64,000 bases of DNA, from assembly GCF_025380365.1 (NCBI RefSeq), contig NZ_JAOCQF010000001.1, forward strand, positions 62,001 to 126,000, written 5' to 3'. The first letter of the stretch is position 1; each line of letters opens with the position of its first letter. Shown here piece by piece: positions 10,084-18,592 of this stretch. This stretch comes from Albidovulum sediminis (GTDB taxonomy: Bacteria; Pseudomonadota; Alphaproteobacteria; Rhodobacterales; Rhodobacteraceae). A program made the position numbers and the translations under genes. The notes beneath the pieces are model-generated. The model was not told where the DNA came from, made no database searches, and was given only the letters and a program-made list of their open reading frames with translations.

Positions 10084-10124
10084 TGCTAAGTGTTTCTGCA
10101 AAGGATGCTAAGTTTATGCTAAAT
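10084..10124. repeat. array of four TGCTAA-like direct repeats, possible operator
   Basis: TGCTAAGT (10084), TGCAAAGG (10097), TGCTAAGT (10106) and TGCTAAAT (10117) lie in one orientation at 9-13 bp spacing. They begin about 130 bp upstream of the oxidoreductase start and run into the end of the GAF-regulator gene. The AT-rich composition stands out from the surroundings. Spacing near one helical turn fits a tandem activator site; the regulator is unknown. Confidence 0.4.
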
Positions 10125-11487
10125 CGGCCGACAGCGCGCCGTCGCCGGCGCATTCGAGGGTGATCGACCCGGCGATGCAGAGCCGCAACTGCCCGCGTCC
10201 GCACTTCTCCAGCCGGATCGGAGCATCGCGTTCCTCAAGCCGCTTGCGCAGCAGCACAAGCCGGGCGTCGAGGTTCTCGGCGTGCTGCGGCAGGCGCAGG
10301 GACGGGTCCAGACGCAGTTCGCGCGTGTTGAAGACGGTGCGCCCGGTTGCGACGTGTTCGCGCAGCAGGCGCCACAGGATGGCGCCCGCGACGCCCTTGA
10401 TCAGGTAATCGTGGCCGAGAAAGATGCTGTCGTCGCGCCCGAAGTGCCGAACCGCGAGGGGCTGCGCCGGGGCAGGGGCGGGCGGCGGTTCTTCAAGGGC
10501 TTCCGTCTCCGGCCCTTCCTGGGAGACGGACTGGATGCAGGTGCCGAGGACGTCGGCGATCACCGCCAATGCGTCCTCATCGTCGTGCCAGTAGCGCATC
10601 GCGACATCGCTTTCGACGAAGAGCACACCGAAGACGTTCGCGCCCGCGAGGATCGGGAGGGCGACCTGGCTCGAAGGGGCGTCTAGGCCCGGAAACGGAA
10701 TCTCGGTCGCGGCCTGCCATTCGATCCCGGTCCGGATGACCGCTTCGCGGATGGCGGCGCCGTAGCGATAGTCGGCGGTCAAGTGATTGATGCGGATCGG
10801 TGTCCGCTCGCGCGCGGCGACGCCGATGATGCCCTCGCCGATCATGATCTCCGATCCGGTGCCGGAACAGGGATAGCCGCGCGACGCCAGGGTGTAGAAA
10901 CGGTCGGCCTCCGGATCGAGCATCAGGATCATGCAATGCCCGATCGCGAACTGCTCGACGAGGCAATCCAGGGTGGCATCGAGCAGTTCGTTCAGATCGC
11001 CGCATCCCTTCAGCCGCGCGCAGGTCTTGCGCACGGCGCCGAGCAGGTCGCGCGGCCGCGACGGCTCCGCCAGGGTGACGCTGGGGACATGTTCGATCGC
11101 GCGCACGCGGAAAATGTCGGCGCCAAGCAGCCGGAAGACACCCTCCATGCCGCTGTGGGACGCAATGCCGGCCAGTTTCGCGCGCATGGACTCGAAGATC
11201 GCCCCGGAGCTTCGGGTTTCGAGAAACTCCAGCGAAAGCCGGTGCTGCGCGTTCGTGATCGGGTCGATCACCTCGACCGTCGCGCGGCGCGTCTCCAGCA
11301 TGTTCCGCCGGGTCTTGTTGAAGAACTGGTAGGACAGGGCCACATGCAGGTCATCGACATGGTGGACTTGCGATATCAGCGAGACGTTCGGCGTGCCCGC
11401 CACATCGCAAGTCGCGAGGGTGGCCGGCAGGATACCTTCAAGCGACCGTCGAATCCCGCCGATCGATACCGTCTCACGCTGGGTCAT
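10114..11487 (-). CDS. split-barrel flavin-binding / GAF / winged-helix-like regulator
   Basis: Three-part protein of 457 residues. Residues 1-135 resemble the pyridoxamine-5'-phosphate-oxidase split barrel (LPATLATCDVAGTPNVSLIS, then HVALSYQFFNKTRRNM). Residues 160-325 form a GAF domain (CMILMLDPEADRFYTLASRG, GEGIIGVAARERTPIRI, LPILAGANVFGVLFVE). After a Pro-rich linker, residues 365-445 look like a winged helix (ARLVLLRKRLEERDAPIRL, RGQLRLCI). Together these suggest a cytoplasmic regulator sensing a flavin, a redox cofactor or a small ligand. It overlaps the preceding split-barrel gene by 4 bp. The FAD oxidoreductase directly downstream is a plausible target. The DNA-binding assignment is my inference from pattern only. 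Confidence 0.65.
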   Translation of the reverse strand: MTQRETVSIGGIRRSLEGILPATLATCDVAGTPNVSLISQVHHVDDLHVALSYQFFNKTRRNMLETRRATVEVIDPITNAQHRLSLEFLETRSSGAIFESMRAKLAGIASHSGMEGVFRLLGADIFRVRAIEHVPSVTLAEPSRPRDLLGAVRKTCARLKGCGDLNELLDATLDCLVEQFAIGHCMILMLDPEADRFYTLASRGYPCSGTGSEIMIGEGIIGVAARERTPIRINHLTADYRYGAAIREAVIRTGIEWQAATEIPFPGLDAPSSQVALPILAGANVFGVLFVESDVAMRYWHDDEDALAVIADVLGTCIQSVSQEGPETEALEEPPPAPAPAQPLAVRHFGRDDSIFLGHDYLIKGVAGAILWRLLREHVATGRTVFNTRELRLDPSLRLPQHAENLDARLVLLRKRLEERDAPIRLEKCGRGQLRLCIAGSITLECAGDGALSADLA

Positions 11488-12184: not shown

Positions 12185-15100
12185 TCAGGTCCGCAGCACC
12201 CGGTAGAGCGCGGGGATGACCAGAACCGTCAGCGCGGTCGAGGACGCAAGCCCGAACAGAAGCGAGATCGCCAGCCCCTGGAAGATCGGGTCGGTCAGGA
12301 TCACCGCCGCCCCGATCATGGCCGCCAGCGCGGTCAGGAGGATCGGCTTGAAGCGGATGGCGCCCGCCTCGATCAGCACCTCGGTCAGCGGCCGGTCTGG
12401 CGTGCGCGCATGGCGGATGAAATCGACAAGCAGGATCGAGTTGCGCACGATGATGCCCGCCAGCGCGATGAAGCCGATCATCGAGGTGGCCGAGAAGGGT
12501 GCGCCGAAGGCCCAGTGGCCCAGCAGGATGCCGATGAAGGTCAGGGGCACCGGCGTCAGGATCACCAGCGGCACCTTGAACGAGCCGAACTGCGCCACGA
12601 CAAGGATGTAGATGCCCAGGAGCGCCACGCCGAAGGCCGCGCCCATGTCGCGGAAGGTGACCCAGGTCACCTCCCACTCACCGTCCCACAGAAGGACCGG
12701 GGCGCTGTCGTCCTCGGGCTGGCCATGCAGCGCGATCTCCGGCTTCGTGAGGCCCGTCCAGTCCTGCGCCTCGAGCGCGTCGGAAACGGCGAGCATGCCG
12801 TAAAGCGGCGCCTCGAATTCGCCGGCCAGTTCGGCGGTCACCATCTCGGCGGGCCTGCCGTTGTGGCGGAAGATCGGGAACGAGGCGCGTTCCTCGGACT
12901 TGGTCACCACGTCGCCCAGTTCGACCACCCCGCGTGCGCCTGGCAGGACGTTGGCCGGGATCGGCGTGGTCAGGAAGCGTTCGTCCAGCACCCGGTCGCC
13001 CTTGGCGCGCTCCATCACGATGGGGATGGGTTGGCGGCCCTCGCCCCGGTGTGAATAGCCGACCGTCCGCCCGCCGTTCAGCATGGCGAGCGTGTCGAGC
13101 ACGTCGGACTCCTGCACCTGGAAGAACTCCGCCGCGTCGGTGGAGACGGTCAGCCGCAGGCGCCGCGCCGGATCGCCGAAGGAATTGTCCACATCGACGA
13201 CGAAGGGGACCGAGCGGAACGCCGCCTCCACCCTTTCGGCCACCGCGCGGCGCGTCTCTGGGTCGGGTCCGTAGATTTCAGCCAGCAGCGTGGCCAGGAC
13301 CGGCGGGCCGGGCGGCGGCTCCACCACCTTCAGGCTCGCGCCCACCGGCAGCTTCAGGTCGGCGAGTTTCGCCCGCAGTTCCAGCGCGATGTCGTGGCTG
13401 GTCCGCTCCCGCTCGCCCTTGGGCGAAAGGTTGACGGCGACCTCGCCCATTTCCGGCATGGCGCGCAGGTAGGTGTGGCGGACGAGGCCGTTGAAGTTGA
13501 AGGGCGCGGCGGTTCCGGCATGGGTCTGGGCCGAGATCACCTCGGGCAGGCTCAGCGCCACGGCGGCGGCGTCCTGCGCGACGCGGTCCGTCTCCTCGAC
13601 CGAGGTGCCTTCGGGCAGGTCGATCGTCACCGACAGTTCCGACTTGTTGTCGAAGGGCAGGAGCTTCACCGTCACATGCTTGGTGTAGAAGAGCGTGAGC
13701 GAGCCGAGCGTCAGGACCAGCACCAGCCCGAGGAAGCCCCAGCTGCGCGCCTTGGAGGCGAGGATCGGCCGCGCGACCGCCCCGTAGCCGCGCCCGAGCG
13801 CGCCACCCGGATGGCCGTGCGCGTCGCCGTGGCCATGGGCCGACATGTCGGCGCGCCCCGCGACCTTCAGCATCAGCCAGGGCGTGACCATGACTGCGAC
13901 GAAGAAGGAAAAGATCATCGCGGCCGAGGCGTTGGCGGGAATGGGGCTCATGTACGGCCCCATCAGGCCGGAGACGAAAAGCATGGGCAGAAGGGCCGCG
14001 ACTACCGTCAGCGTGGCAACGATGGTGGGGTTTCCGACCTCGGCCACCGCGTCGATGGCGGCCTGCCGCCGCGACCGCCCGTCGGCCATGGCCCAGTGCC
14101 GGGCGATGTTCTCGATCACCACGATTGCGTCGTCGACAAGGATGCCGATGGAGAAGATCAGCGCGAACAGCGACACCCGGTTCAGCGTGTAGCCCATGAT
14201 CCACGAAGCGAAGAGCGTGAGAAGGATCGTCACCGGAATGACGATGGCGACCACGAACGCCTCTTTCCGGCCGATCGTTGCCCAGACCAGCGCGATGATC
14301 GAGATGGTGGCAAGGCCGAGGTGGTAGAGCAGTTCGTTGGCCTTCTCGTTGGCGCTTTCGCCGTAGTCGCGGGTGATCTCGATCGCGACATCGTCGGGGA
14401 TGAGCCGGCCTTCGAGCGCCTGGGTCCGGTGCAGGATCTCCTCGGCCACCACCACGGCGTTGGCGCCCGCGCGCTTGGCGATGGCCAGGGTGACGGCCGG
14501 GACGCGCAGCGTGGCCTCGCCCTCGCGGGTGACGGAGGCGACGATGTGTTCCTCGGCGCCGGAGACGAAGCTCACCTCGGCCACGTCGCGGACATAGACC
14601 GGGCGGCCGTCGCGCGTGGTCAGGAGAAGGTTGCCGATCTCCTCGGGCGAGCGCAGCGTCTCGCCCACGGCAAGCTCGATCTGCTCGCCGCCGTCGCGCA
14701 GCCGCCCGGCGGGAAAGGCCGCGTTGGCGCCCTGCACCTTGCCGGCCAGCTGTTGCAGCGTCATGCCGTAAAGCGCCAGTTTCTCCGGGTCGGGGGCGAT
14801 GCGCAGCCGCTCGCTCGTCTCGCCGACGATGTAGGTCAGGCCCACGTCTTCGATCTTGGCGATCTCGGTCCTGAGTTCGCGCGCGATCCGGGTCAGGTCG
14901 TTCGCGGTCATCCGCCTCGCCGCCTCGGGCTTCGGCGTCAGCGTCAGCGACAGGATCGCCACGTCGTCGATGCCGCGCCCGACGATCAGGGGTTCGGGGA
15001 TGCCGACCGGGATGCGGTCCATGTTGGCGCGCAGCTTTTCATGCACGCGCAGGATCGCCGCGTCGGAGGAGGTGCCGACCAGGAACCGCGCCGTCACCAT

Positions 15101-15412
15101 CACCTGGTCGTCGCGGGTCTGGGAATAGACATGTTCGACCCCGTTGATCCCTTTGACAATGGTTTCAAGGGGTTCGGTGATCAACTTCACCGCGTCCTCG
15201 GCGCGCAGGCCGTCCGCGCGCAGGTGGATGTCCACCATCGGGACCGAGATCTGCGGCTCCTCCTCCCGCGGGAGGGAGACGAGCGCGACAAGGCCGAAGA
15301 CGAAGGCGGCGACAAGGAACAGGGGCGTCAGCGGCGAGGTGATGAAGGCACGCGTCAGCGCCCCGGCAAGGCCGGGTTTCAGGGGGCCCGGTTTCTGGGG
15401 CTCGGGGCTCAC
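12185..15412 (-). CDS. RND efflux pump inner-membrane permease
   Basis: AcrB/HAE1-type proton-driven transporter of 1075 residues, full length, with two six-helix halves and two large periplasmic loops. TM4 carries the proton-relay pair in GILVDDAIVVIENIARH. The N-terminus (LFLVAAFVFGLVALVSLPREEEPQI) and second-half motifs (LTPVPLTFIGILLGHWAFG) are typical. A His-rich loop (SAHGHGDAHGHP) near residues 522-535, between the halves, is unusual and could bind metal. It overlaps the adaptor gene by 4 bp. No outer-membrane channel gene is adjacent. The operon starts at a DUF2892 gene behind an SqrR-type operator, so sulfide or persulfide stress may induce it (inference). Confidence 0.92.
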   Translation of the reverse strand: MSPEPQKPGPLKPGLAGALTRAFITSPLTPLFLVAAFVFGLVALVSLPREEEPQISVPMVDIHLRADGLRAEDAVKLITEPLETIVKGINGVEHVYSQTRDDQVMVTARFLVGTSSDAAILRVHEKLRANMDRIPVGIPEPLIVGRGIDDVAILSLTLTPKPEAARRMTANDLTRIARELRTEIAKIEDVGLTYIVGETSERLRIAPDPEKLALYGMTLQQLAGKVQGANAAFPAGRLRDGGEQIELAVGETLRSPEEIGNLLLTTRDGRPVYVRDVAEVSFVSGAEEHIVASVTREGEATLRVPAVTLAIAKRAGANAVVVAEEILHRTQALEGRLIPDDVAIEITRDYGESANEKANELLYHLGLATISIIALVWATIGRKEAFVVAIVIPVTILLTLFASWIMGYTLNRVSLFALIFSIGILVDDAIVVIENIARHWAMADGRSRRQAAIDAVAEVGNPTIVATLTVVAALLPMLFVSGLMGPYMSPIPANASAAMIFSFFVAVMVTPWLMLKVAGRADMSAHGHGDAHGHPGGALGRGYGAVARPILASKARSWGFLGLVLVLTLGSLTLFYTKHVTVKLLPFDNKSELSVTIDLPEGTSVEETDRVAQDAAAVALSLPEVISAQTHAGTAAPFNFNGLVRHTYLRAMPEMGEVAVNLSPKGERERTSHDIALELRAKLADLKLPVGASLKVVEPPPGPPVLATLLAEIYGPDPETRRAVAERVEAAFRSVPFVVDVDNSFGDPARRLRLTVSTDAAEFFQVQESDVLDTLAMLNGGRTVGYSHRGEGRQPIPIVMERAKGDRVLDERFLTTPIPANVLPGARGVVELGDVVTKSEERASFPIFRHNGRPAEMVTAELAGEFEAPLYGMLAVSDALEAQDWTGLTKPEIALHGQPEDDSAPVLLWDGEWEVTWVTFRDMGAAFGVALLGIYILVVAQFGSFKVPLVILTPVPLTFIGILLGHWAFGAPFSATSMIGFIALAGIIVRNSILLVDFIRHARTPDRPLTEVLIEAGAIRFKPILLTALAAMIGAAVILTDPIFQGLAISLLFGLASSTALTVLVIPALYRVLRT

Positions 15413-16374
15413 GGCGCCACCACCCTGTCGCCGGGCACGAGTCCCGTCAGCACCTCGATCATCTCGGCGCCGTCAAGCGACACCGCCTCGCCCAGAACCA
15501 CGGCGCGTTCGCGGCCGTCCTCCAGCGTCACGAAGTCGATGCCGCCCCGCGTTGCCACGGCGCCTTCCGGCACCAGAAGCGCGGTCCGGCTGCCCACCGG
15601 CAGCGTGACCAGCAGGCGCAGCCCCACATAGGCGGTGGCCAGCCCCTCGACATCGACATCGGCGATGACGCGGCCGTTCTCGATCTGGGGATAGAGTTTC
15701 GCGATGCGGCCCCGCGCCTCGCCCGCGTCGGTGGCGATGCCAAGTTCCGCGCCCTCCTCCAGCGTGCCCGCATGGCGTTCGGGGATGGCGAGGCGGAGGA
15801 AGAAGCCGCCGCCGCCGATGGTTGCGACGGGTTCGCCCGGCAGGATCACCGCGCCCCGCGTCACCGGCACGGTGAGCACCCGGCCGGCGGCAGGCGCGAG
15901 CACCTGGCCCTCGGCGGCCTGCTGTTCCACGACCGCGCGCTGGGCGCGGGTGGCGGCGATCTGGCCACGCGCGACATCGACGGCGGTGCGCAACTGGTCA
16001 AGCCGCTGCACCGTGGCCACGCCACGCTCCACCAGTTCCTCGCCGCGCTTCAGTTCGGTTTCCGCGGTCGCCAGTTGCGCCTGGAGCGCCGCGATCTGCG
16101 CATCGAGTGCTGCGATCTGGAAGGCGATCTTGTCGTCATGCACGCGCGCAATCTCCTGCCCGGCCTCGACTGCATCGCCCTCCGACACGGAAAGCTCCGT
16201 CACCGTCCCGCCAATGCGGGCGCGGGCGGGCACGGTCTCCTTCGCCTCGACGCGGCCGTAGACGGGTTTCCACTCCGTCACCGGGCTTGGCTCGATGGTG
16301 ATCGTCTCGGCCAAGGCGGGAACGGCGAGAAGGGTGGAGGCTGACAGGGCCTGAGCAAAGAGGAACGCGCGCAA
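15409..16374 (-). CDS. RND periplasmic adaptor (membrane fusion protein)
   Basis: HlyD/AcrA-type adaptor, 321 residues. It has a cleavable signal peptide (MRAFLFAQAL..PALAE, about 22 residues) and no lipobox, so it is periplasmic rather than lipid-anchored. The order is biotinyl-lipoyl half (GGTVTELSVSEGDAVEAGQEIA), coiled-coil hairpin around residues 80-150 with heptad Ala/Leu/Glu repeats, second lipoyl half (GQVLAPAAGRVLTVPVTRG) and beta-barrel. The C-terminal membrane-proximal part is short. It lies 19 bp after the DUF2892 gene and overlaps the permease gene, forming a three-gene operon. Confidence 0.9.
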   Translation of the reverse strand: MRAFLFAQALSASTLLAVPALAETITIEPSPVTEWKPVYGRVEAKETVPARARIGGTVTELSVSEGDAVEAGQEIARVHDDKIAFQIAALDAQIAALQAQLATAETELKRGEELVERGVATVQRLDQLRTAVDVARGQIAATRAQRAVVEQQAAEGQVLAPAAGRVLTVPVTRGAVILPGEPVATIGGGGFFLRLAIPERHAGTLEEGAELGIATDAGEARGRIAKLYPQIENGRVIADVDVEGLATAYVGLRLLVTLPVGSRTALLVPEGAVATRGGIDFVTLEDGRERAVVLGEAVSLDGAEMIEVLTGLVPGDRVVAP

Positions 16375-16393
16375 GGTTCGGTCCTTTCCGGGG

Positions 16394-16594
16394 TCAGAAG
16401 GCGCAGCCGCGCTTGACGCCGAGTTTACGCAGAATTCCCGCGGCTGGACAGAAGCCGGTGAACGCCGATTGCAGCATGTTGGCGCCGACGAAGGCGGTCA
16501 GCCACATGAAATAGGGCGACACCCACAGGGTCAGGGCGAGTGAGAGAAGGATCATGCCGCCGGCAAAGGCGAACATCACGCGGTCGATGGTCAT
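16394..16594 (-). CDS. DUF2892 (YgaP-type) small membrane protein
   Basis: Membrane protein of 66 residues with two hydrophobic spans (FAFAGGMILLSLALTLWV and FMWLTAFVGANMLQSAF) and the family C-terminus TGFCPAAGILRKLGVKRGC. DUF2892 domains often occur with rhodanese or sulfur-handling proteins and in operons of BigR/SqrR persulfide sensors. Cys48 within GFC and Cys64 near the end could carry persulfide, which is speculative. It is the first gene of the pump operon, with GAAGCT-type weak ribosome site and a perfect SqrR-like palindrome 24 bp upstream of the start. Confidence 0.85.
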   Translation of the reverse strand: MTIDRVMFAFAGGMILLSLALTLWVSPYFMWLTAFVGANMLQSAFTGFCPAAGILRKLGVKRGCAF

Positions 16595-16617
16595 GGGAAG
16601 CTCCGATGGGATGAGTT

Positions 16618-16643
16618 AATACATTCGTAAATGTGAATGTATT
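16618..16643. promoter_or_regulatory. SqrR/BigR-type operator (ATTC-N8-GAAT)
   Basis: ATACATTC (16619-16626) and GAATGTAT (16635-16642) form a perfect inverted repeat around 8 bp, one more A/T pair extending it on each side. It contains exactly the ATTC-N8-GAAT core described for the persulfide-responsive repressor SqrR. It is positioned to block the promoter of the DUF2892-adaptor-RND operon, and the sqrR gene lies about 1.6 kb away. Confidence 0.8.
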
Positions 16644-16671
16644 GTGGGAATTGCAAGCCCTTTCGTCACGA

Positions 16672-16703
16672 CCCCGCCCGATCCTTGCCAAGATCCGGCG
16701 GGG
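16672..16703 (-). terminator. hairpin downstream of sqr
   Basis: CCCCGCCCGATC (16672-16683) pairs with GATCCGGCGGGG (16692-16703) with one mismatch and an 8-nt loop. It follows the sqr stop and precedes the pump operon promoter. No strong U-run follows, so it may be a weak or factor-assisted terminator. Confidence 0.5.
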
Positions 16704-16730
16704 CAGGGGGTGCCCAGGGCCATTCGGGGC

Positions 16731-18020
16731 CTATTCGGTCTCCACGCTGATTTCCTTCAGCTTCTGGATGCCAAGGACATGCAGCGCCAGCCGTTCGTAG
16801 AAGCCTTCGGCCTTGCCGGTGCGGACCTTGTGGAGAAAGTATTTCTCGAACCCGATCTTTGCGGCATGGACCCACTTGCCGGACGACGACCAGTTGACGT
16901 TGCGCGGCGGGATCTGCGGCTGGGCAACAAAGGCCACGCCACCATCGCCGAAATCGGCCAGGCAGACGGCGTTCCAGGTGCCCTCGGCATTGGGCTCCTT
17001 GCCCTCGATCAGGCGGGCGATGTTGTGGGTTGTCGCCGTGACCATGCTTTCGATCATGAAGCCGGTTTTCGGCACACCCACCGGCACCGGCGTCTTGCCC
17101 ATCGGCGGGATCGCCACGCAGACGCCGACCGAGAAAATCTCGGGGAAGGCGGGGTTGCGCTGGTGCTTGTCGACAAGGATGAAGCCGCGCGGGTTGGTCA
17201 GCCCCTCGATCCCCCGGACCGCCTCGACACCGCGGAAGGCGGGCAGCATCATGGTGAAGGTCTGCGGGATCTCGTGGGTCTTCGCGACGGTCCCGTCCTC
17301 GGCGATCTCCGAGACGTGGAGCTTGTCGGCCTCTACCCTGTCGAGCTTGGCGTTGCAGATCCACTTGATGTGATGCTGCCGCAGTTCGCTTTCCAGCAAC
17401 CCCTTGGTGTCGCCCACCCCGTCAAGGCCGAGGTGGCCGATATAGGGTTCGGAGGTGACAAAGGTCATCGGCACCCGGTCGCGCACCTTGGCATCGCGCA
17501 GCGCCTTGTCGAGGATGAAGGTGAACTCGTAGGCCGGGCCGAAGCAGGAGGCGCCCTGAACCGCGCCGATCACCACCGGGCCGGGGTTGGCCACCAGCCG
17601 GTCGAACGCCTCCTTCGCCTGAAGCGCGTGGCTGATGTGGCAGACCGACTGGGTATGGCCGGCCGGGCCGAAGCCCTCGATCTCGTCGAAGGCAAGGTCG
17701 GGGCCGGTCGCGATCACGAGGTAGTCGTAGCTGACCTGCGCCCCGTCATTCAGCTCGATGCGCTTTTCCTGAGGATGCACGCGCTTCGCGCCCTGCGCGT
17801 GAAGGGTGATGTTGCGCTTGGCAAGGACCGGCGCGAGGTCGACGCTGGTCGCCTCCTCGGTGCGCCAGCCGACCGCGACCCAGGGGTTCGAGGGTACGAA
17901 CTGATAGGTCGACCCCTTGTTGACGACGCTGATCCGGTGCGCCTTGCCCAGCTTGTCGGCCAGTTCATAGGCCATGATGGTGCCGCCGAGTCCGGCGCCG
18001 AGAACGACGATATCTGCCAT
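16731..18020 (-). CDS. sqr: sulfide:quinone oxidoreductase
   Basis: Peripheral membrane flavoprotein that oxidises sulfide to sulfane sulfur and passes electrons to quinone. It has 429 residues. The FAD-binding GxGxxG is at VVLGAGLGGTIMAYEL. The three cysteines needed for activity in Rhodobacter capsulatus SQR are present at the same numbers: Cys127, Cys159 and Cys353. PVGVPKTGFMIESMV contacts the flavin in relatives, and the C-terminal helices that anchor to the membrane are retained. The start ATG at 18020 follows GGGGAGATC; a longer frame to 18077 has no ribosome site. Its promoter region holds a perfect FNR box and a degenerate SqrR site, and the sqrR gene lies immediately upstream. Confidence 0.93.
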   Translation of the reverse strand: MADIVVLGAGLGGTIMAYELADKLGKAHRISVVNKGSTYQFVPSNPWVAVGWRTEEATSVDLAPVLAKRNITLHAQGAKRVHPQEKRIELNDGAQVSYDYLVIATGPDLAFDEIEGFGPAGHTQSVCHISHALQAKEAFDRLVANPGPVVIGAVQGASCFGPAYEFTFILDKALRDAKVRDRVPMTFVTSEPYIGHLGLDGVGDTKGLLESELRQHHIKWICNAKLDRVEADKLHVSEIAEDGTVAKTHEIPQTFTMMLPAFRGVEAVRGIEGLTNPRGFILVDKHQRNPAFPEIFSVGVCVAIPPMGKTPVPVGVPKTGFMIESMVTATTHNIARLIEGKEPNAEGTWNAVCLADFGDGGVAFVAQPQIPPRNVNWSSSGKWVHAAKIGFEKYFLHKVRTGKAEGFYERLALHVLGIQKLKEISVETE

Positions 18021-18118
18021 GTTGATCTCCCCCAAGGCCGGTCGCGCCGGCAAGCCTGAACGTGCGGCCGCAAGCACGGCGCATCTGGAAAGGATAGACC
18101 CATGCGGCCCGTCCGGAA

Positions 18119-18132
18119 TTGATCCGGATCAA
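18119..18132. promoter_or_regulatory. FNR-type box upstream of sqr
   Basis: TTGATCCGGATCAA is a perfect TTGAT-N4-ATCAA palindrome, the consensus for FNR/FnrL. It is about 100 bp upstream of the sqr start codon, which fits activation of sqr at low oxygen. The site is seen directly; the regulation is inferred. Confidence 0.75.
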
Positions 18133-18139
18133 AAGAGAT

Positions 18140-18155
18140 ATATAAAAGTATGAAT
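18140..18155. promoter_or_regulatory. degenerate SqrR-like half-site near sqr promoter
   Basis: The arrangement ATAT-N8-GAAT keeps one perfect GAAT half of the ATTC-N8-GAAT core while the other half is mismatched. It is embedded in an AT-rich tract 8 bp from the FNR box. A weaker SqrR operator is plausible but unproven. Confidence 0.35.
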
Positions 18156-18184
18156 ATGAGGTCCGGCTTCGCCGCTGGGCTGTC

Positions 18185-18529
18185 CTAGGCGTCGGGCGCG
18201 GCGCAGAAGAGACCGTAGAGCGTCTTGACCAGTTCGGCCGCGCGCTTGTCGGCGATGGCGTAGTAGATCGTCTTGCCGTCGCGCCGGCAGCCGACGAGTC
18301 CCTCCACCCTCAGCCGCGCGAGTTGCTGGCTGACCGCCGCCTGGCGCATTCCCAGCCGGTTCTCCAGTTCGGTGACCGAACATTCGCCCTCGGATAGGTA
18401 GCACAGGATCATCAGACGCCCTTCGTGCCCGAGCGCCTTGAGAAGGGCCGCCGCCTCGGTGGCGCGCGCCATCATGTCTTCGGCCGTCACCGGCGATTCG
18501 TCCGCGCGCTCGATCACTTCCGTGGTCAT
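18185..18529 (-). CDS. sqrR: ArsR-family persulfide-responsive repressor SqrR
   Basis: Winged-helix repressor of 114 residues. Helix-turn-helix is at VTELENRLGMRQAAVSQQL and wing at RRDGKTIYYAI. Cys43 (LMILCYL) and Cys109 (GLFCA) are 66 residues apart, the same spacing as Cys41 and Cys107 that form the tetrasulfide switch in R. capsulatus SqrR. The ELCVCDL metal site of SmtB/ArsR metal sensors is absent. Cys50 and Cys81 are additional. It lies 164 bp upstream of sqr on the same strand. A perfect TCATAT-N12-ATATGA repeat is upstream of its own start and might mark autoregulation. Likely targets are sqr and the DUF2892-RND operon. Confidence 0.88.
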   Translation of the reverse strand: MTTEVIERADESPVTAEDMMARATEAAALLKALGHEGRLMILCYLSEGECSVTELENRLGMRQAAVSQQLARLRVEGLVGCRRDGKTIYYAIADKRAAELVKTLYGLFCAAPDA

Positions 18530-18568: not shown

Positions 18569-18592
18569 TCATATAGGGCAAATCCGATATGA
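18569..18592. promoter_or_regulatory. inverted repeat upstream of sqrR
   Basis: TCATAT (18569-18574) and ATATGA (18587-18592) form a perfect 6-bp inverted repeat around 12 bp, between the divergent sqrR and glycerate kinase genes. It does not match the ATTC-N8-GAAT core, so its binder is unknown. Confidence 0.35.

What the first reader, a model, noticed from the sequence alone, without database searches (positions are those of the whole stretch)
12185..16643. SqrR-type operator in front of a DUF2892-adaptor-RND operon: a persulfide-inducible efflux pump?
A perfect 26-bp dyad containing exactly ATTC-N8-GAAT lies at the start of the DUF2892-MFP-RND operon. sqr and a SqrR with correctly spaced Cys43/Cys109 are next door. 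This puts an RND pump under apparent sulfide/persulfide control, which suggests export of a toxic sulfur species or a persulfidated compound.
Basis: partly seen in the sequence, partly recalled or inferred. Interest (0 to 1): 0.78.

Follow-up and report, generated by a model that had tools for sequence, protein, structure and literature searches.

The report
Sulfide-sensor-controlled RND efflux pump
Next to a bacterium's sulfide sensor and sulfide-oxidising enzyme sits an export pump that carries the sensor's DNA switch, and the same pairing recurs in related bacteria, which suggests a dedicated pump for coping with sulfide or its reactive products; what it exports is not known.

Summary
The dyad AATACATTC-N8-GAATGTATT lies at 16618-16643, 23 bp upstream of the DUF2892-adaptor-RND operon. 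The ATTC-N8-GAAT core alone means little in one window. Comparison supports the regulatory idea. The core, enriched only at the 8-base spacing, precedes the pump in 15 of 42 family loci (shuffles on 41: mean 0.17) and sqr in 7 of 29 (0.22). The adaptor co-occurs with sqr: 23 of 42 genomes with it, 6 of 107 without. The 7 top-ranked named relatives of Rhodobacter capsulatus SqrR all lie beside this pump; none of the next 73 do, though 30 of those are cut by contig ends. Across the class, SqrR, DUF2892 or rhodanese genes flank 20 of 26 orthologs and 0 of 30 other RND loci. So this is probably an old pump of the sulfide regulon, repressed by a SqrR/BigR-type sensor. Against: 27 of 42 family pumps lack the exact site, and 32 of 42 have no SqrR gene nearby. 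The cargo is unproven; the permease is cysteine-free in 57 of 66 orthologs, which fits sulfane-sulfur handling but proves nothing. One 2025 paper already mentions RND genes beside such regulators.

The parts
18185..18529 (-). SqrR-type ArsR-family repressor, 114 aa, Cys43 and Cys109
   Evidence: 68% identical over 95 aa to the R. capsulatus SqrR segment; best solved-structure match 13ct/6o8l-6o8o, E 1.2e-37 (6O8N is named as SqrR in PMC9774590, passage); the NCBIfam BigR model matches at 110 bits, below its cut-off of 155
16731..18020 (-). sqr, sulfide:quinone oxidoreductase, 429 aa
   Evidence: match over nearly the whole length to solved sulfide-quinone reductases, E 3.7e-139
18138..18157 (.). 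degenerate dyad upstream of sqr (plus strand ATATAT-N8-GAATAT)
   Evidence: read from the sequence; 6 of 8 core letters
16672..16703 (-). GC-rich hairpin between sqr and the dyad, possible attenuator
   Evidence: inverted repeat I2, 12 nt arms, 92% complementary; the terminator scan found none in 16560-18200
16618..16643 (.). SqrR-type operator AATACATTC-N8-GAATGTATT
   Evidence: perfect dyad; only perfect site for the extended pattern in the genome (pattern chosen after seeing it); same core upstream of orthologous pumps
16394..16594 (-). DUF2892 / YgaP-like transmembrane protein, 66 aa, with the FCPAA motif
   Evidence: PF11127, 45 bits against a cut-off of 25; translation; orthologs in other pump operons
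15409..16374 (-). RND periplasmic adaptor (MFP), 321 aa, TTG start
   Evidence: TIGR01730, 131 bits against a cut-off of 95
12185..15412 (-). RND permease, 1075 aa, no cysteine, Asp427-Asp428, Arg990
   Evidence: PF00873, 483 bits; residue counts

Best explanation
The DUF2892-adaptor-RND operon is a dedicated efflux module of the sulfide regulon. At low sulfane sulfur, reduced SqrR binds the dyad at 16618-16643, close to or over the promoter, and silences the operon. When sulfide is oxidised by SQR to persulfides and polysulfides, these link Cys43 and Cys109, SqrR leaves the DNA, and the pump is made together with SQR and a rhodanese. The pump then exports an excess product of sulfide oxidation, most likely a low-molecular-weight persulfide, a polysulfane or a related thiol-reactive compound. 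The DUF2892 membrane protein may act as a sulfur carrier or partner at the membrane. Shown here: gene identities, the dyad, its conservation and spacing, and the linkage and co-occurrence. Inferred from published SqrR work: the sensing chemistry. Inferred only: promoter overlap, cargo and the role of DUF2892. I put control by a SqrR/BigR-type regulator at about 0.85 and export of a sulfane-sulfur species at about 0.4.
For: Operator: exact ATTC-N8-GAAT within -150..+20 of the first pump gene in 15 of 41 family loci (the window is one of the 15), shuffles mean 0.17 and at most 2 in 300 rounds; up to one mismatch 26 of 41 against 3.7 (at most 9); of spacings 0 to 20, spacing 8 gives 15 loci and no other more than 2. 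The same core precedes sqr in 7 of 29 loci, shuffles 0.22; no other spacing gives more than 2. In the own genome the only one-mismatch extended site lies upstream of a rhodanese gene; in R. capsulatus sqr and a rhodanese gene are SqrR targets (PMC9995734, passages), and the printed primer at the start of trxC, another SqrR target induced over 20-fold, contains ATATTC-N8-GAATAT (PMC10044876, passages; my reading of the primer). Linkage: the 7 top-ranked of 80 named relatives of R. capsulatus SqrR all sit beside the pump, 0 of the other 73 do, and all 7 pumps carry the exact core. The 7 matches at E 1e-42 in 394 family genomes are pump-linked too: G205, G225, G252, G016, G024, G046, G254 by shared contig length and position with L130. 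Co-occurrence with sqr: 23 of 42 against 6 of 107, p 1.3e-10. Class: SqrR-like beside 16 of 26 orthologs, DUF2892 19, SQR 7; SqrR, DUF2892 or rhodanese within 1.5 kb of the permease in 20 of 26 against 0 of 30 other RND loci. No cysteine in the permease in 38 of 40 and 19 of 26 orthologs.
Against: 27 of 42 family pumps lack the exact core in the stretch searched, and 7 of 41 have no more than 5 of 8 core letters there. In fetched stretches SqrR is linked in only 10 of 42 family loci, SQR in 5 and DUF2892 in 11. In the class only 2 of 26 have the exact core and 5 of 26 the general form ATTx-N8-x'AAT; there spacing 2 is raised as well, 4 of 26 against 0.4. The window's sqr has only a degenerate site. 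The tree leaves the window's SqrR unresolved on a long branch. SqrR falls below the NCBIfam BigR cut-off. A SoxR-type paralog exists in the genome, so which regulator uses the dyad is not proven. The promoter scan finds none on the minus strand at the dyad. Co-occurrence was not corrected for phylogeny. All cargo arguments are indirect.
Confidence: 0.65

Rival explanations
1. The pump is a general multidrug or biocide exporter that has been put under the sulfide sensor, so sulfide gives cross-tolerance; its natural cargo has no sulfur.
For: Solved relatives are mostly multidrug pumps: adaptor nearest 6vej and MexJ, permease nearest 7wlv and 7cz9 over its length and MexK for its C-terminal part. 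A SqrR/BigR homolog of E. coli affects antibiotic tolerance (PMC9774250, title and passages).
Against: Linkage to SqrR, DUF2892 or rhodanese was absent from 30 other RND loci; a general pump would not be expected to track sqr.
Confidence: 0.35
2. The dyad is bound by another ArsR-family protein of the same subfamily, such as the SoxR-type paralog at G000:C11:549813, and the operon answers to thiosulfate oxidation rather than to sulfide.
For: A SoxR-type paralog lies in a sox cluster of this genome and has both cysteines.
Against: None of the 17 core sites of the genome lies in the soxS-soxV intergenic region. G016, G024, G046 and G114 have a single homolog at E 1e-15; it lies beside the pump, and the pump carries the exact core.
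Confidence: 0.1
3. The dyad is a chance or non-functional repeat and the pump is co-transcribed from the sqr promoter or constitutive.
For: The core alone is found in about half of shuffled windows; in some relatives sqr runs almost directly into DUF2892 with no exact core between (L081 and L084, L335).
Against: Conservation of position, core and spacing in relatives.
Confidence: 0.05

Closest known systems
SqrR regulon of Rhodobacter capsulatus
   Same: Two-cysteine ArsR-type repressor, published deduced site ATTC-N8-GAAT (PMC9774250, passage), sqr and a rhodanese gene as targets (PMC9995734, passages)
   Different: Here the regulator lies beside sqr and the pump. The 2017 R. capsulatus paper is not held and I did not see its target table, so an RND target may already be listed there.
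RND genes beside sulfane-sulfur-responsive ArsR regulators (PMC12423496, 2025; section 2.1 read)
   Same: The paper states that such regulators appear to act on RND efflux pumps, from gene neighbourhood
   Different: The section read gives no operator, pump family or conservation test; its Table S1 and Figure S2 were not seen (no supplement look-ups allowed, none tried)
bigR operon of Xylella and Agrobacterium (PMC5823870, passages)
   Same: Same repressor family, sulfide response, a membrane transporter in the operon
   Different: The transporter is TauE-related and the enzyme a DUF442-ETHE1 fusion, not RND and SQR
MexJK and the 6vej RND pump (the name TriABC for 6vej is recalled)
   Same: Best solved matches of the adaptor (6vej, MexJ) and of the permease C-terminal part (MexK, which shares the Arg at the position of Arg990)
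   Different: Over its length the permease matches other solved pumps better; no sulfur-gene context of these pumps was examined here

Membership tests
SqrR/BigR sulfane-sulfur-responsive ArsR family | Two conserved cysteines 66 residues apart | tested here: met
   Cys43 and Cys109; both present in 121 of 121 matched loci, some of them the same gene twice, so not discriminating within the set
SqrR/BigR sulfane-sulfur-responsive ArsR family | NCBIfam equivalog BigR (NF040642) above cut-off | tested here: not met
   110.2 bits against 155; I therefore call it SqrR-type and do not file it as BigR
SqrR/BigR sulfane-sulfur-responsive ArsR family | Orthology with R. capsulatus SqrR in a tree | tested here: inconclusive
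   68% identity but the tree leaves the window's SqrR unresolved
SqrR/BigR sulfane-sulfur-responsive ArsR family | Tetrasulfide formation and release from DNA | not testable with these tools
   needs purified protein
SqrR operator | ATTC-N8-GAAT dyad at target promoters | tested here: met
   present at the pump and enriched before pumps and sqr of the family; the window's own sqr has only 6 of 8 letters
RND efflux permease (PF00873) | Family score and Asp pair in TM4 | tested here: met
   483.5 bits; Asp-Asp in 66 of 66 orthologs; that the pair lies in TM4 is recalled
Multidrug RND permease subfamilies (NF033617, NF000282, TIGR00915) | NCBIfam cut-off | tested here: not met
   405, 323 and 258 bits against 1250, 1250 and 940
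Heavy-metal RND (CusA/CzcA, TIGR00914) | NCBIfam cut-off | tested here: not met
   239 bits against 701
RND periplasmic adaptor (TIGR01730) | NCBIfam cut-off | tested here: met
   131.2 bits against 94.9
Tripartite RND system | Outer-membrane channel gene in the operon | not tested
   no gene lies between the five described, but neighbouring frames and the genome were not searched for a channel

The most novel reading that the evidence does not exclude
This is a distinct, class-wide branch of RND pumps that evolved to export reactive sulfane sulfur (persulfides, polysulfanes or S-thiolated products). It has shed its cysteines so as not to react with its own cargo, and it works with a DUF2892 sulfur carrier as the efflux arm of bacterial sulfide oxidation.
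Probability: 0.3. Interest if true: 0.85.

Novelty: new variant of a known kind. Interest (0 to 1): 0.58.

Why it matters
How bacteria rid the cell of excess persulfides and polysulfides is, to my knowledge, open: the R. capsulatus work speaks of eventual efflux of polysulfides and says the mechanism is not known (PMC9995734, passage). A conserved pump of the sulfide regulon gives a candidate. It would also offer a route by which sulfide could induce an efflux pump and so affect drug tolerance. Loci with the pump beside SqrR, DUF2892, SQR or rhodanese genes were seen in 18 families of the class, the window's own included, so a test in one tractable species may carry over.

Tried and rejected
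Chance dyad: rejected by conservation in relatives. Heavy-metal RND: rejected by score. A tree to prove orthology of the window's SqrR was unresolved. Arg990 as a special feature was dropped because MexK has it too. A first count of sqr operators was wrong for minus-strand loci and was redone. The start of DUF2892 was set one base off, which makes its distance for the window one too large. Papers: the listings (titles and abstract beginnings only, listing 30 of 43 and listing 20 of 21) showed PMC12423496 as the one paper that joins RND pumps to such regulators.

Limits of the counts: the adaptor search found 42 of 149 genomes; 40 relatives were fetched first, and G022 later, so shuffles cover 41 of 42. 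Of the 73 named SqrR loci without the pump, 30 are shorter than 20 kb because the contig ends, and one of them (L134, 5 kb) is 77% identical to the query, as high as some of the top seven. The 30 other RND loci come from another genome sample, several per genome. The cysteine control used the same 30 loci: 5 gave no motif match and were dropped, and in one (L328) the frame taken was not RND, leaving 2 of 24 cysteine-free; its frames run from stop to stop and may include extra residues, while the ortholog counts use aligned segments only. The ortholog count covers 40 of 41 family loci, L046 being split. L283, L291, L300 and L303 are cut by contig ends or fetched short.
Full report
What is there. 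On the minus strand, in transcription order, lie SqrR (18529-18185), sqr (18020-16731), DUF2892 (from 16594), an RND adaptor (16374-15409) and an RND permease (15412-12185). A perfect 26-bp dyad lies at 16618-16643 between sqr and DUF2892. A GC-rich hairpin lies between the end of sqr and the dyad; the terminator scan found none, so read-through from sqr is possible.

Is it more than chance? The core ATTC-N8-GAAT alone is not: 49 of 100 shuffled windows contain one, and the genome holds 17. The extended form TAYATTC-N8-GAATRTA has a single perfect site in 4.29 Mb, this one, against 0.0018 expected from composition; the pattern was written after seeing the site, so this is post hoc. The only one-mismatch site, at G000:C11:733585, lies about 55 bp upstream of a single-domain rhodanese gene. 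At up to three mismatches there are 50 sites against 25 for the reversed control pattern, so many weaker sites are noise. In R. capsulatus sqr and a rhodanese gene are regulated by SqrR in response to sulfide (PMC9995734, passages), and the deduced SqrR site is ATTC-N8-GAAT (PMC9774250, passage). The printed primer at the start of R. capsulatus trxC, a gene raised over 20-fold by sulfide and by loss of sqrR, contains ATATTC-N8-GAATAT (PMC10044876, passages; my reading).

Conservation of the operator. The adaptor occurs in 42 of 149 genomes of the family, in 41 genera. In 41 fetched loci, the window among them, the exact core occurs within 150 bp upstream to 20 bp downstream of the first gene in 15; dinucleotide shuffles give 0.17 on average and at most 2 in 300 rounds. 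With one mismatch allowed it is 26 against 3.7 (at most 9). Spacing 8 gives 15 loci and no other spacing from 0 to 20 more than 2. The 42nd locus, G022, has no such site before the pump; there sqr, DUF2892, adaptor, permease and SqrR form one cluster. Seven of the 41 have at most 5 of 8 core letters in the stretch; one of these, L059, has an exact core further up, at -201. In front of 29 sqr genes of the family the exact core occurs in 7 (shuffles 0.22) and with one mismatch in 17 (3.6); no other spacing gives more than 2. The pump and sqr thus share one operator type. In several loci, read by eye, a TTG-type -35 element sits about 17 bp before a -10 position that falls within the dyad, which would fit repression by occlusion; the consensus scan did not find such a promoter in the window.

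Linkage. I took the R. capsulatus SqrR segment from its solved structure and searched named genomes. Of the 80 best loci, the seven top-ranked (L125-L131, 72-81% identity) all carry this adaptor and permease within 10 kb; none of the other 73 do, though 30 of these are cut short by contig ends. All seven pumps have the exact core. Several of these are the same genomes as in the family set. In the family set itself SqrR lies in the fetched stretch in 10 of 42 loci, SQR in 5 and DUF2892 in 11, so most family pumps stand apart from their presumed regulator. The two cysteines are present in all 121 matched loci, so they do not separate SqrR from its paralogs. Genomes G016, G024, G046 and G114 hold a single homolog at E 1e-15, which sits beside the pump, and their pump carries the exact core; this argues that SqrR itself uses the site. 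In the window's genome there is a second homolog in a sox cluster.

Co-occurrence. All 42 genomes with the adaptor have a SqrR-like gene at E 1e-15, against 88 of 107 without (p 0.0018); 23 of 42 have sqr at E 1e-100, against 6 of 107 (p 1.3e-10). Phylogeny was not corrected for, though the sample holds 149 genomes of 148 genera.

Across the class. Orthologs of the permease (59-73% identity) occur in 26 further genomes of 20 other families among 337 genomes searched. In the fetched stretches SqrR-like genes accompany 16 of 26, DUF2892 19, SQR 7, and at least one of these 20. Within 1.5 kb of the permease, 20 of 26 have SqrR, DUF2892 or rhodanese matches against 0 of 30 other RND loci. The exact core is found in 2 of 26 and with one mismatch in 6. 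The general form ATTx-N8-x'AAT is found in 5 of 26, with shuffles at 0.4 and at most 2; three of these have ATTAG/CTAAT half sites. Spacing 2 is raised too, 4 of 26 against 0.4. So the linkage is wider than this operator.

The pump. The adaptor passes the RND adaptor model; the permease passes Pfam but no NCBIfam multidrug or heavy-metal subfamily cut-off. Nearest solved relatives are 6vej and MexJ for the adaptor, 7wlv and 7cz9 for the whole permease and MexK for its C-terminal part. The Asp pair is kept in 66 of 66 orthologs, and Arg990 in all 65 that cover it; MexK shares the arginine. The permease has no cysteine in 38 of 40 family and 19 of 26 class orthologs, against 2 of 24 usable other RND permeases. 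Shared ancestry inflates this contrast. It fits a pump that meets thiol-reactive sulfur but is no proof.

Mechanism. The most likely course: SQR turns sulfide into persulfide and polysulfide, these oxidise SqrR, the dyad is freed, and the pump is made to remove an excess reactive sulfur product. The cargo could instead be an unrelated toxic compound. DUF2892 keeps one cysteine in the motif CPA in the intact pump-operon copies (read by eye), which would suit a sulfur carrier; this is a guess.

Novelty. One paper states that sulfane-sulfur-responsive ArsR regulators appear to act on RND pumps, from gene neighbourhood (PMC12423496, section 2.1 read). The 2017 SqrR paper was not held, so a known RND target there cannot be excluded. 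In the listings I saw no operator analysis and no experiment on such a pump. I rate it a new variant of a known kind.

Noticed in passing
window 12185-15412; L046-L085; L279-L304: The permease is cysteine-free in 57 of 66 orthologs, against 2 of 24 usable other RND permeases.
   Followed up: partly
G000:C11:733585 (L206, 1501-1522): Second-best match to the extended dyad pattern in the genome, upstream of a single-domain rhodanese gene.
   Followed up: yes
window 16672-16703: GC-rich hairpin just after sqr; may separate sqr from the pump transcript.
   Followed up: no
window 18569-18592: Imperfect dyad TCATATAGG-N6-CCGATATGA upstream of sqrR, possibly for another regulator or autoregulation.
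   Followed up: no
L057, L061, L063, L065, L070: Variant pump sites of the form ATTC-N8-GCAT at about the same place, 45-52 bp upstream of the adaptor.
   Followed up: no
L296, L298, L300: In other families the pump is preceded by ATTAG/CTAAT dyads with the same overall spacing.
   Followed up: partly
L123 8730-13057: A sox-type cluster with a SoxR-type regulator, a YeeE-family transporter and a SoxS-like protein lies in the same genome (the sox names are recalled).
   Followed up: partly
window 10114-11487: A 457-aa protein with weak matches to the N-terminal parts of NifA and a PTS protein (GAF-type, recalled) lies downstream of the pump on the same strand.
   Followed up: no
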